64,000 bases of DNA from Paenirhodobacter populi. GTDB lineage: Bacteria > Pseudomonadota > Alphaproteobacteria > Rhodobacterales > Rhodobacteraceae. Below, piece by piece: positions 7,351 through 16,964 of the stretch. Both the position numbers and the translations under genes were made by a program. The notes below the pieces were generated by a model. That model was not told the origin of the DNA, searched no databases, and saw only the letters and a program-made list of their open reading frames with translations. Location: NCBI RefSeq assembly GCF_004022215.1, contig NZ_SAUZ01000017.1, positions 62,001 to 126,000 of the forward strand. Reading direction: 5' to 3'. How positions within the stretch are numbered: position 1 is the first letter of the stretch; each line of letters opens with the position of its first letter.

Positions 7351-7457
7351 GTTGGCGGCTAGGGTTCCGGCACCGAAAGGTGTGACTGGTCCGAGAGCTA
7401 CCACCAGCGGGGGAGACATCCCCGTTTGGCGCACGGCGGGATAAAAGCCCGGGAGAC
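7351..7457 (+). ncRNA. guanidine-I riboswitch (ykkC/yxkD class)
   Basis: The hallmark conserved segments occur in the right order. GGCTAGGGTTCCG is at about 7356-7368, ACTGGTCCGAGAGC at about 7385-7398, a GGGGGAGACATCCCC hairpin follows, and the 3' block GGCGGGATAAAAGCCCGGGAGAC ends at 7457. These are the consensus elements of the guanidine-I riboswitch. It ends about 67 nt before the start of an ABC-transporter gene and heads an operon of guanidine uptake and degradation genes, the best-known context for this class. It should turn the operon on when guanidinium is bound. The switching mechanism (terminator or SD occlusion) in the region 7458-7523 is not clear. Confidence 0.95.
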
Positions 7458-7523
7458 CTCGTCCAGCCAAGGGATTGGCGGCGATGGTCCGTCATTCCCT
7501 CATGTATATGAAAGGAAGGACCC

Positions 7524-14600: not shown

Positions 14601-15171
14601 CCGCACGATCCAGGTCTGGAACACCTGGCGGCGGACGGCGGCCTTTCGCGACAGGCCGTGGCTGCTGGATTTCTTCGACCAGATCCGCTTTTTCCCGGTC
14701 AGTCATCAGGAGCTGGAAGAGGCCCGCGCCGCCTTCCCCCACGGCGGCTATGATCTGCGGATCGAGGAAGGCACCTTCGACTGGGCGGCGGAAAAGCGGC
14801 GCCTTGCCGAGGAGGCGGACAGTATCGCCGCCTTCAAATCGCGCCAGCAGGCGGCGTTCGGGGCGGAAAGGGCGCGGTGGAAGGCGCTCGGGCTCGATCA
14901 TTTCCTGCCCGATGAAGGCGCGCGGCTGGAAGGCGCGGACCTGCCCGCCGGCTGCATTGGCGTGGAAAGCCCGGTGCCGGGCAATCTGTGGAAATACCTT
15001 GTCGCGCCGGGGGCGCGGGTCGCCGCGGGCGATCCGATCGCCATCCTTGAATCGATGAAGATGGAAATTACCGTGCCGTCGCCCGCGACGGGCCGGCTGC
15101 GCGAATTGCGCGCGGCGCCGGGCCGGACGCTGCGCGCCGGCGATGTTCTGGCCGTGATGGAGACCGAATGA
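11668..15171 (+). CDS. biotin-dependent guanidine/urea carboxylase
   Basis: A 1167-residue multidomain enzyme. An N-terminal biotin carboxylase (VLVANRGEIAVRIL; ATP-grasp loop KSTAGGGGIGM near residue 155; EVNTRLQVEHPVTE near 290) is followed by the KipA/AHS2-like domain (from about 450) and the KipI/AHS1-like domain. A C-terminal biotinyl domain carries ESMKM, with K1131 as the biotin site. It uses ATP and bicarbonate to carboxylate urea or guanidine. The riboswitch and the two associated proteins make guanidine the likely substrate. The start at 11668 is the first ATG after the preceding gene; the 3' end overlaps the allophanate hydrolase by 4 nt. Confidence 0.92.
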   Translation: MFSKVLVANRGEIAVRILRTLKKMGIASVAVYSDADRFAPHVRLADEAVRLGPAPAAESYLNAEAVLAACRATGAEAVHPGYGFLSENTGFSARLAAAGIAFIGPRPEHVEAFGLKHTARELAKAAGVPLLPGSGLLSDADAAAEEAARTGYPVMLKSTAGGGGIGMSLCPDEAALRAAFAGVQRTASASFGDARVYLERFVPDARHVEVQVFGNGTGRVIALGERDCSLQRRNQKVIEETPAPLLPDAVRARLHRAAADLCARVSYASAGTVEFIYDPRRAEFYLLEVNTRLQVEHPVTEAVFGIDLVEWMIRQAAGEDPIPATMPAPQGAAIEARLYAEMPHAGFRPSAGLLTEVVFPDTARIDGWIETGSEVTTFYDPMLAKIIVHAADRSAALAGLRDALARTRVSGIETNLEYLRAIVGSELLASGKVATTALAAFAFAPEGIEVLSPGPQSSLQELPGRLGLWHVGVPPSGPMDARSHRNANRLLGNPPDTTTLEMTVSGPVLRFLAPARVALAGARMRLTLDGTPVEGPVVEVPAGATLAIGAIEGPGQRAYLAVAGGFDAPEILGSRATFALGHFGGPAAGVLKTGDVLHIGRAKVGPPLPPEPGGLTHDWVLSVVYGPHGAPDFFRDNDIATLFSTAYEVHFNSARTGVRLIGPAPDWARSDGGDAGLHPSNIHDTAYAIGAIDFTGDMPIILGPDGPSLGGFVCPAVVTAEDLWKLGQLRPGDRVRFRAAERPADPVAGPALLRMGSPVVSAVEGAVPVTYRRQGDENLLVEYGPMVLDIELRLRVQLLMQAVRAAALPMIDLTPGIRSLQLHYDSRRISRADLLAELQRIEAALPAADQVRVPSRTVWLPLSWNDPQAELAMRKYQDLVRPNAPWCPSNIEFIRRINGMEDEAEVRRTIFDARYLVMGLGDVYLGAPVATPVDPRHRLVTTKYNPARTWTPENAVGIGGAYMCIYGMEGPGGYQLFGRTIQVWNTWRRTAAFRDRPWLLDFFDQIRFFPVSHQELEEARAAFPHGGYDLRIEEGTFDWAAEKRRLAEEADSIAAFKSRQQAAFGAERARWKALGLDHFLPDEGARLEGADLPAGCIGVESPVPGNLWKYLVAPGARVAAGDPIAILESMKMEITVPSPATGRLRELRAAPGRTLRAGDVLAVMETE

Positions 15172-16964
15172 TGCTGTTGCCCCCGATGATGACCCTGCAT
15201 TCCATCCGCGCCGCCTATGCCGCGGGCGCGACCCTCCTCGATATCGTCGAGGAAGTGATCGCCCGCCGGGCGCGGCTGGCCGCGCGGGACCCGGCGGTGT
15301 TCATCACCCCCGTGCCCGACGCGGCGCTGCGCGCCACCGCCCGCGAACTGACCGCTCGCGGGCCGCAGGGCCTGCCGCTTTTCGGCATCCCCTTCGCGGT
15401 CAAGGACAATATCGACGTGGCGGGCCTGCCCACCACGGCGGCCTGCCCCGCCTACGCCTATGACCCAGCGGCGGATGCGACCACGGTGGCGCGGCTGATC
15501 GCGGCCGGGGCAATCGTGATCGGCAAGACCAATCTGGACCAGTTCGCCACCGGGCTGAACGGCACCCGGTCGCCCTACGGGGCGCCGCGTTCGGTCTTCG
15601 ATCCGGATCATGTCTCGGGCGGGTCTTCCTCCGGTTCGGCGGTCGCGGTGGCGGCGGGGGTCTGCGCCTTCGCGCTCGGCACCGATACGGCGGGGTCGGG
15701 CCGGGTGCCGGCGATGTTCAACAACCTCGTCGGCATCAAGCCCACGCCGGGCCTTGTCCCCTGCACCGGGGTGGTTCCGGCATGCCGGTCGATCGACGTG
15801 GTGACGGTGCTGGCCCTGACCGTGCCCGAGGGGGTCGAGATCCGGCGGATCATGGAAGGTCACGATCCCGCCGACCCGTTTTCGCGCCATGCCGCCCCGG
15901 TGGCCCTGCCCCCGCGCCCGCGCATCGGCATCCTTCAGGGGGCCGAGCGGAATTTCTACGGCAATGCCGAGGTCGAGGCGCTCTATGACGCCGCCGCCGC
16001 CCGGGCCGAGGCGCTTGGCGCCACGCTTGTCCCCTTTGACTACGCCCCGTTCCGCGAGGCGGCGGCGCTGCTCTATGACGGGCCGTGGGTCGCCGAGCGG
16101 CTGGCGGCGGTCGAGGGGTTCCTCGCCACCAACGCAGGGGATTTCGACCCCGTGGTGCGCGGGATCGTCGAGGGCGCGCAGAACCGCAGCGCGGTCGAGG
16201 CGTTCCGCGGTCTCTACCGGCTGAAAGAGCTGTGCCAGCAGGTCGCCCCGGTCTGGGAGGCGGTCGACATGCTGATGCTGCCCACATCGCCCACCACCTG
16301 CACCGTGGCGGAGATGCTGGCCGATCCCGTCCGGCGCAATAGTGAATTCGGTCTTTACACCAATTTCGCCAATCTGATGGGGCTTGCCGCCATCGCCGTG
16401 CCGGGCGGGTTCGGCGCCTCTGGCCTGCCGGCCGGGGTGACGCTGGTGGGGCCGGGCTTCAGCGACGATGCTTTGGCCGGGTTTGCGGCGGCCCTGCATG
16501 CGGCGGCGGCCTGCGGTCTGGGGGCCGACCGTGCCGCCCCCGTCCCGCCCGCTCCTCTGCCCGATTTGCCCGAGGACTGGCTGACCCTTGCGGTGGTGGG
16601 TGCGCATCTGACGGGGATGCCGCTCAACCACGAACTCACCGGCCCGGGCGGCGTCCTTCTTGCGCGGACGCGCACCGCGCCCGGCTACCGGCTTTACGAG
16701 CTGCCGGACAGCGTGCCGCCGAAGCCGGGCCTGATCCGCGACCCGGATTTTACCGGCGATGGCATCGAGGTGGAGCTGTGGGCGCTGCCCGCCGCGGCCT
16801 TCGGGCGGTTCGTGGCCCGCATTCCGGCGCCGCTGGGGATCGGCAAACTGGAACTGGCGGATGGCGGGCAGGCCAGCGGTTTCCTGTGCGAAGGCCATGC
16901 GCTCCGCGATGCGCGGGAAATCACGTCCTTCGGCGGCTGGCGCGGCTGGCTGGCCGCGCGATAG
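15168..16964 (+). CDS. atzF: allophanate hydrolase
   Basis: A 598-residue enzyme that converts allophanate to two CO2 and two ammonia. The N-terminal amidase-signature domain shows the Ser-cisSer-Lys triad: K79 (FAVKDN), S153 (VSGGSSSGS) and S177 (GTDTAGSGR). A C-terminal domain of about 130 residues (from WLTLAVVGAHLTGMPLN) is the gamma-glutamylcyclotransferase-like part found in full-length allophanate hydrolases (AtzF/DUR1,2 type). The start overlaps the carboxylase stop (ATGA). It completes the operon, so guanidine nitrogen ends as ammonium. Confidence 0.93.
   Translation: MMLLPPMMTLHSIRAAYAAGATLLDIVEEVIARRARLAARDPAVFITPVPDAALRATARELTARGPQGLPLFGIPFAVKDNIDVAGLPTTAACPAYAYDPAADATTVARLIAAGAIVIGKTNLDQFATGLNGTRSPYGAPRSVFDPDHVSGGSSSGSAVAVAAGVCAFALGTDTAGSGRVPAMFNNLVGIKPTPGLVPCTGVVPACRSIDVVTVLALTVPEGVEIRRIMEGHDPADPFSRHAAPVALPPRPRIGILQGAERNFYGNAEVEALYDAAAARAEALGATLVPFDYAPFREAAALLYDGPWVAERLAAVEGFLATNAGDFDPVVRGIVEGAQNRSAVEAFRGLYRLKELCQQVAPVWEAVDMLMLPTSPTTCTVAEMLADPVRRNSEFGLYTNFANLMGLAAIAVPGGFGASGLPAGVTLVGPGFSDDALAGFAAALHAAAACGLGADRAAPVPPAPLPDLPEDWLTLAVVGAHLTGMPLNHELTGPGGVLLARTRTAPGYRLYELPDSVPPKPGLIRDPDFTGDGIEVELWALPAAAFGRFVARIPAPLGIGKLELADGGQASGFLCEGHALRDAREITSFGGWRGWLAAR

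What the first reader, a model, noticed from the sequence alone, without database searches (positions are those of the whole stretch)
7351..16964. Complete guanidine degradation operon under a guanidine-I riboswitch
A consensus ykkC riboswitch leads an importer, two DUF1989 proteins, a biotin carboxylase and allophanate hydrolase. Known biochemistry (guanidine carboxylase, CgdAB, allophanate hydrolase) gives a full guanidine-to-ammonia route. The NitT/TauT-type transporter as the guanidine importer is the least-proven part.
Basis: partly seen in the sequence, partly recalled or inferred. Interest (0 to 1): 0.7.

Follow-up and report, generated by a model that had tools for sequence, protein, structure and literature searches.

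The report
Guanidine operon with translated second riboswitch
The window carries a known kind of operon for importing guanidine and breaking it down to ammonia, but besides the riboswitch at its head it has a second, different guanidine riboswitch hidden inside the end of a protein-coding gene, an arrangement that recurs in many related bacteria.

Summary
Rfam finds guanidine-I at 7348-7457 (79.9 bits) ahead of importer, two DUF1989, carboxylase and allophanate hydrolase genes. The carboxylase has Asp at both published guanidine-carboxylase positions. So the pathway is a known one; importer specificity stays unproven.

Operons with both classes are published, but with guanidine-II before the carboxylase gene. 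In the nearest alphaproteobacterial relatives it sits at the ATPase/DUF1989 junction: 75 of 81 sources. In 67 of these 75 its P1 hairpin is ATPase coding sequence, always in one phase, with compensatory base changes. In other classes it lies between genes, before the carboxylase: 13 of 19 loci.

Best reading: guanidine-I controls the operon, guanidine-II the enzyme genes, on RNA that ribosomes must also translate. Whether the overlap serves regulation is untested; simple folding gave no support. New variant of a known kind.

The parts
7348..7457 (+). Guanidine-I (ykkC) riboswitch aptamer at the head of the operon
   Evidence: Rfam RF00442, 79.9 bits, E 1.3e-12
7524..8591 (+). Periplasmic substrate-binding protein of a NitT/TauT-like ABC importer (putative guanidine-binding protein)
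   Evidence: TIGR03427 equivalog 527.7 bits; NMT1_2
8595..9416 (+). ABC importer permease
   Evidence: PF00528; TauC/SsuC-like but below equivalog cut-offs
9413..10270 (+). ABC importer ATPase; its 3' codons run through the whole guanidine-II aptamer
   Evidence: PF00005; translation 9413-10270 without an inner stop
10177..10225 (+). Guanidine-II (mini-ykkC) riboswitch aptamer, P1 and P2 hairpins with ACGA loops, inside the ATPase reading frame
   Evidence: Rfam RF01068 36.5 bits, gathering 32, E 0.0011; own model R2 48.8 bits, the window being one of its 30 training sequences; covarying P1 pairs in relatives
10232..10235 (+). Likely Shine-Dalgarno GGAG of the first DUF1989 gene, 6 nt before ATG 10242
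   Evidence: sequence reading; inference
10242..11054 (+). UAAP1 / DUF1989, carboxyguanidine deiminase subunit (start 10242 preferred over 10236)
   Evidence: TIGR03425 220 bits, cut-off 206; PF09347
11066..11662 (+). UAAP2 / DUF1989, second carboxyguanidine deiminase subunit
   Evidence: TIGR03424 325.7 bits, cut-off 284.7
11659..15171 (+). Biotin-dependent guanidine carboxylase with signature residues D696 and D925 (K. lactis 1330 and 1584)
   Evidence: TIGR02712 1738 bits; alignment with 3va7; positions
15168..16964 (+). Allophanate hydrolase
   Evidence: TIGR02713 757 bits; PF21986 AH_C

Best explanation
This is a guanidine import and degradation operon of a Rhodobacteraceae-type alphaproteobacterium with two guanidine sensors. 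A guanidine-I riboswitch at the head controls the whole transcript. A guanidine-II riboswitch controls entry into the enzyme genes (two DUF1989 carboxyguanidine deiminase subunits, guanidine carboxylase, allophanate hydrolase), which turn guanidine into ammonia and CO2 at the cost of ATP. The guanidine-II P1 hairpin (in this window the whole aptamer) is also the last stretch of the importer ATPase coding sequence, so ribosomes finishing the ATPase must pass through and melt the aptamer; it can sense guanidine only between ribosome passages. Shown by sequence comparison: both aptamers, all genes, the carboxylase signature, the recurrent overlap and the single reading phase of P1. Inferred from published work on relatives: enzyme activities and ON-switch behaviour. 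Inferred without direct test: translational control by guanidine-II of the first DUF1989 gene, any coupling effect of the overlap, and guanidine as the importer substrate.
For: Rfam hits for both classes. Family hits above cut-offs. Asp at both guanidine-carboxylase positions (criteria in PMC11410670). Guanidine-II at the same junction in 75 of 81 sources. P1 inside the ATPase frame in 67 of 75, at only three distances from the conserved WPPR codons (47, 53, 59 nt), all in the same phase; in the 8 cases where the ATPase stops before P1 all three phases occur. P1 keeps pairing through changes on both sides: pair 3 GC 47/AT 6/GT 1, pair 5 CG 38/TA 12, pair 6 AT 35/GC 11 among 54 distinct sequences. 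All 6 loci with the A-U form of pair 3 encode QDDL, the 2 with G-U encode RDGL, and the 59 with G-C encode RDGP, RDDP or WDDP: the amino acids follow the base pair. The tail before P1 shows more changes at third codon positions in all three groups examined. In a published homologous operon each class bound guanidine in vitro (PMC12508155, passages).
Against: Folding gave no sign of a switch: in the 36 of 75 loci where my filter found a Shine-Dalgarno, its mean predicted pairing was 0.63 with and without P1/P2 imposed, and the window was not among the 36. The window stretch folds only mildly better than shuffles (z -1.58, 11 of 200 shuffles as good). The aptamer is often open by chance: the ATPase frame is stop-free across it in 44 of 75, the other two frames in 62 and 66 of 75. 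No consistent third-position excess in P1 or P2, and in the linker clearly only in one group of three; in that group the heterozygosity measure shows none for the tail either (0.210, 0.077, 0.202). No terminator-like site in window 7100-7600 after guanidine-I. Of 78 readable sources 8 have the aptamer outside the ORF and 3 lack it, so the overlap is not essential. Importer substrate untested.
Confidence: 0.78

Rival explanations
1. The guanidine-II riboswitch is real and works, but its overlap with the ATPase frame is incidental: it was once placed close behind the ATPase core, GC-rich aptamers rarely hold stops, and the extra C-terminal tail is harmless. Phase is kept only because frame-shifted tails would run into the next gene.
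For: Other frames are open across the aptamer even more often, 62 and 66 of 75. As few as two length changes (47, 53, 59 nt) are needed among embedded cases, so phase locking has few independent events. No consistent codon-position signal inside P1 and P2. Relatives with the aptamer outside the ORF exist (8 of 75).
Against: Embedding prevails in both large clades of the ATPase tree (19 of 21 and 48 of 57 rows) although intergenic placement is possible; paired changes R to Q with P to L show that both constraints have been carried together.
Confidence: 0.45
2. The conserved ATPase tail (RDDP/RDGP) is selected as a protein feature, for example for contact with the permease, and the RNA match is secondary.
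For: Tail shared by two families, in-frame length differences only; more third-position changes before P1.
Against: Amino acids change in pairs that keep RNA base pairing; ATPases without the tail occur in the 8 sources with the aptamer outside the ORF and in G022 without any; in L072, where the loops are lost, the P1 peptide is changed too.
Confidence: 0.08
3. Urea operon: urea carboxylase with a urea importer, the riboswitches sensing guanidine only as a proxy.
For: Database names say urea (TIGR02712, TIGR03427).
Against: Asp, not Asn, at the K. lactis 1330 position; two guanidine riboswitches in the operon; two DUF1989 genes, which fit carboxyguanidine rather than allophanate as the carboxylase product; the genome has a urease alpha gene elsewhere.
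Confidence: 0.04
4. The guanidine-II match is a chance hairpin pair in a GC-rich coding sequence.
For: Score only 4.5 bits over the gathering score.
Against: Same junction in 75 of 81 sources and compensatory changes in P1; Rfam itself scores it above cut-off in L004, L007, L037 and L064-L066.
Confidence: 0.01

Closest known systems
gca/mgdH operon of Vreelandella boliviensis (PMC12508155; abstract and passages seen)
   Same: Guanidine-I at the head, internal guanidine-II, ABC importer, two deiminase subunits, guanidine carboxylase, allophanate hydrolase; both riboswitches shown to bind guanidine there
   Different: There guanidine-II lies between cgdB and gca and there are mgdH/mgdL genes; here it lies before the first deiminase gene, inside the ATPase frame, and this operon holds no further genes
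Enterobacterial guanidine operons of Raoultella, Erwinia, Klebsiella (review PMC12186494; passages seen)
   Same: Two riboswitch classes divide one pathway
   Different: There guanidine-I goes with importer plus deiminase and guanidine-II with carboxylase plus hydrolase; here all enzymes, deiminase included, lie behind guanidine-II
Guanidine-II riboswitch before sugE/gdx in E. coli (PMC9300104; passages seen)
   Same: Two ACGR hairpins, proposed translational ON switch
   Different: There described in the 5' region of the exporter gene, not inside an upstream coding sequence. The window's genome also has guanidine-II before an SMR gene

Membership tests
Guanidine-I riboswitch (RF00442) | Covariance-model score at or above the curated cut-off | tested here: met
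   79.9 bits against 63
Guanidine-I riboswitch (RF00442) | Binds guanidine and switches expression ON | not testable with these tools
   No bench work; no terminator-like site found in window 7100-7600
Guanidine-II riboswitch (RF01068) | Score above cut-off, two ACGR-loop hairpins | tested here: met
   36.5 bits against 32, both loops ACGA
Guanidine-II riboswitch (RF01068) | Guanidine-dependent exposure of the Shine-Dalgarno sequence | tested here: inconclusive
   Thermodynamic folding showed no difference in 36 of 75 loci usable, window not among them
Guanidine carboxylase | TIGR02712 above cut-off | tested here: met
   1738 bits against 1303.85
Guanidine carboxylase | Asp at K. lactis 1330 and Asp at 1584 | tested here: met
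   GAIDFTGD against GAINFTGD of 3va7; GLGDV Asp maps to 1584
Carboxyguanidine deiminase (two DUF1989 subunits) | Both UAAP1 and UAAP2 models above cut-off, adjacent | tested here: met
   TIGR03425 220.0 against 205.95; TIGR03424 325.7 against 284.7
Carboxyguanidine deiminase (two DUF1989 subunits) | Membership of the CgdA and CgdB clades in a PF09347 tree | not tested
   Criterion from PMC11410670; no such tree was built
Allophanate hydrolase | TIGR02713 and C-terminal AH_C domain | tested here: met
Guanidine ABC importer | Transports guanidine | not testable with these tools
Dual-riboswitch guanidine operon as published | Internal guanidine-II placed between deiminase and carboxylase genes | tested here: not met
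   It lies at the ATPase/deiminase junction; 13 of 19 loci of other classes have the published placement

The most novel reading that the evidence does not exclude
A translated riboswitch: in Alphaproteobacteria the guanidine-II aptamer has been built into the C-terminal codons of the importer ATPase so that its folding, and with it expression of the energy-costly degradation enzymes, depends both on guanidine and on whether ribosomes are passing through the importer gene. It would be a two-input control made from one aptamer and a dual-coding sequence.
Probability: 0.3. Interest if true: 0.72.

Novelty: new variant of a known kind. Interest (0 to 1): 0.45.

Why it matters
The pathway is established, so the operon alone adds a member. 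The embedded guanidine-II is worth attention: a validated aptamer class is part of a protein-coding sequence in dozens of related genomes, with neighbours that have the same aptamer outside the gene as natural controls. That makes a specific question testable: does translation across an aptamer tune it, disable it or leave it alone? It also shows that the two guanidine riboswitch classes divide the same pathway at different points in different bacterial classes.

Tried and rejected
Urea operon: rejected on the carboxylase signature and the two riboswitches. Chance hairpins: rejected on conservation. Stop-free run-through of the aptamer as proof of coding: rejected, because other frames are open even more often. 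A Shine-Dalgarno switch shown by folding: tried, no difference found; my start/SD filter accepted only 36 of 75 loci, the window not among them. Guanidine-I expression platform across relatives: my pattern placed only 16 sources, so I drop it. Covariance counts on alignment A4: discarded, because model R1 had the P2 helix out of register; I rebuilt it as R2 and counted pairs directly. The first classification used a strict loop pattern and missed many P2 loops; one search replaced it. Binding-protein structure: not possible.

Literature: ten searches were made; those nearest to the question of an aptamer inside an upstream coding sequence were 37, 46 and 86, whose listings showed 20 of 31, 20 of 109 and 12 of 227 papers. 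I saw none there, nor in the passages that I opened, that describes a guanidine-II aptamer inside an upstream coding sequence. Schneider 2020, Weinberg 2007, Sherlock 2017 (guanidine-II), Nelson 2017 and Sinn 2021 are not held, so priority is not established.

Selection and rows dropped: the 80 loci are the best 80 of 158 relatives found with an alphaproteobacterial query, so they say how common the arrangement is among near relatives only. L083, L112 and L122 had no readable adjacent ATPase tail, leaving 77 loci plus the window. Carboxylase signature: 73 of 81 met by a simple pattern; 5 with one residue found, 1 with none, 2 without a carboxylase hit. The codon-position test used 57 of the 67 embedded sources. 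In the phylum survey (E <= 1e-40) 30 of 42 matching genomes gave loci; two of the 30 (own genome and its genus mate) were left out of the 28 compared.
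Full report
Observation. These are the only two Rfam matches at gathering score in the window. Seven genes follow the first riboswitch on the + strand with no other gene between them: binding protein, permease, ATPase, two DUF1989 proteins, a urea/guanidine carboxylase and an allophanate hydrolase, identified by curated families. The window lies in a 4.78 Mb genome (G000) whose ATPase groups with two Sinirhodobacter rows in a tree (95/88 support); G046, which the tool places in the same genus, has a contig of the same length as the Sinirhodobacter ferrireducens record.

Guanidine or urea. The carboxylase was aligned with the solved K. lactis urea carboxylase 3va7: the residue at K. 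lactis 1330 is Asn there and Asp (D696) here, and Asp 1584 is kept (D925). A published survey used these two Asp residues to define guanidine carboxylases (PMC11410670, methods passage). By a simple pattern 73 of 81 sources (80 related loci plus the window) show both Asp residues; 6 were not fully resolved by the pattern and 2 had no carboxylase hit. The genome has one carboxylase over the TIGR02712 cut-off and a urease alpha gene elsewhere. The chemistry, guanidine to carboxyguanidine to allophanate to ammonia and CO2, is taken from the literature (PMC11410670 and PMC12186494, passages), not shown here; that the DUF1989 pair is the deiminase rests on family names and that literature. The importer's binding protein belongs to TIGR03427, named 'putative urea ABC transporter'; nothing here tests its ligand, and the only solved chains found are taurine and sulfonate binders.

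Second riboswitch. The guanidine-II aptamer lies inside the ATPase frame 9413-10270, which has no stop before 10270. The likely start of the first DUF1989 gene is ATG 10242, six bases after GGAG 10232-10235 (inference); ATG 10236 is the alternative. Operons with both riboswitch classes are known: in Vreelandella boliviensis guanidine-II lies between cgdB and gca and each aptamer binds guanidine in vitro (PMC12508155, abstract and passages), and enterobacteria are described with deiminase behind guanidine-I and carboxylase behind guanidine-II (PMC12186494, passages). The window differs in position.

How general is it. A genome-contig scan found 158 relatives of the first DUF1989 protein and kept the best 80; by their titles all are Alphaproteobacteria except one record labelled Exiguobacterium, whose ATPase groups with the Rhodobacteraceae rows. 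Because the query was alphaproteobacterial this is a sample of near relatives. A covariance model made from 30 guanidine-II sequences (the window and L004, which is the L071 organism, among them) found a full-length match at the ATPase/DUF1989 junction in 75 of 81 sources, and a cut-off one in L112. Of 78 sources with a readable ATPase tail, the ORF contains both hairpins in 39 and P1 only in 28, ends before P1 in 8, and there is no aptamer in 3. The window is among the 39. In the 67 embedded cases P1 begins at one of three distances from the conserved WPPR codons, 47 (48 cases), 53 (3) or 59 nt (16), all the same phase; in the 8 non-embedded cases the distances are 50, 52, 53, 53, 57, 82, 83 and 136 nt, in all three phases. 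The tree needs only about five changes among these states, so the three distances represent few independent events and the phase argument is suggestive rather than strong. In the window's family 5 of 394 genomes hold a relative of the first DUF1989 protein at 59% identity or more; four have the embedded aptamer and one (G022) has neither aptamer nor tail. Guanidine-II as such is commoner in that family, 52 of 295 genomes; its other positions were not examined except in the window's genome.

RNA or protein. In 54 distinct embedded sequences P1 pairs 1 and 2 never vary, and pairs 3, 5 and 6 occur mainly as GC 47/AT 6, CG 38/TA 12, AT 35/GC 11. All 6 loci with the A-U form of pair 3 encode QDDL, the 2 with G-U encode RDGL, and the 59 with G-C encode RDGP, RDDP or WDDP: two amino acids change together as base pairing requires. 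The tail upstream of P1 has more changes at third codon positions in all three groups examined (57 of the 67 sources), though in one group heterozygosity does not show it; P1 and P2 show no consistent excess, and the linker shows it clearly only in the Rhizobium group with the stop between the hairpins (0.8, 0.6 and 2.0 changes per site at positions 1, 2, 3). So the tail looks translated up to P1, and within P1 the RNA sets the sequence. That the frame stays open through the aptamer is not in itself remarkable: it does so in 44 of 75 for the ATPase frame and 62 and 66 of 75 for the others.

Other classes. A phylum-wide search for the second DUF1989 protein at E <= 1e-40 matched 42 of 398 genomes and gave 30 loci, of which 28 were compared. 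Rfam places guanidine-II at the ATPase/DUF1989 junction in 6 of 9 loci of the window's class and between the second DUF1989 gene and the carboxylase in 13 of 19 loci of other classes (one more, L167, by loop pattern only); all 13 begin after the DUF1989 stop codon. None of the 19 had it at the ATPase junction. Of the six, P1 lies in the ATPase frame with the usual phase in L149-L151, in the frame with phase unread in L152, after the ATPase stop in L174, and the ATPase end was not readable in L154.

Mechanism. Best supported: guanidine-I acts on the whole transcript, guanidine-II on translation of the first enzyme gene, both ON with guanidine, as proposed for the classes in print (PMC12186494 and PMC9300104, passages). 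Results against: minimum-energy folding shows no Shine-Dalgarno release when P1 and P2 are imposed (36 of 75 loci usable, window not among them), and no terminator-like site was found in window 7100-7600. The overlap implies that ribosomes completing the ATPase unfold the aptamer. Whether this is used, for example to tie enzyme production to importer translation, or is merely tolerated, cannot be decided from sequence; I give about 0.3 to use.

Verdict. Pathway and head riboswitch: already known kinds, confirmed. Placement of guanidine-II inside the ATPase coding sequence in Alphaproteobacteria: a new variant as far as the papers that I could search show; five key papers were not held.

Noticed in passing
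L145:3321-3433 (-) and L146:3518-3630 (-), same genome as the window (G000:C34 and C47): Two guanidine-I-like RNAs well below the cut-off (43.3 and 41.9 bits), each just upstream of an EamA-family transporter ORF. They fit the orphan ykkC subtype 2d, said to precede EamA and TauE transporters with its ligand undetermined (PMC7266159, passages).
   Followed up: partly
L144:2518-2564 (-) with ORF 2178-2516 (-), G000:C5: A guanidine-II riboswitch (36.2 bits) before a small multidrug resistance (Gdx/SugE-like) exporter gene in the same genome: the cell may both degrade and export guanidine.
   Followed up: partly
L072:9930-10004: Tabrizicola MAG in which both guanidine-II loops are lost although the ATPase tail keeps its frame and length: looks like a recent loss of the RNA.
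   Followed up: partly
L216:1501-2438: Genome G077: a guanidine-I-like match under the cut-off (51.9 bits) followed by what looks like a fragment of the binding protein; perhaps a decaying operon.
   Followed up: no
L068: Record titled Exiguobacterium profundum carries a Rhodobacteraceae-like operon; perhaps a mislabelled bin. Its binding-protein match contains a stop codon.
   Followed up: no
L065:4283-4467: Cobalamin riboswitch (116.8 bits) upstream of the guanidine operon in Rhodovulum strictum.
   Followed up: no
window 16980-17942 (-): ORF on the opposite strand behind the operon whose translation looks like an AraC-type regulator with a cupin-like N-terminus; a reading of the translation only.
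   Followed up: no
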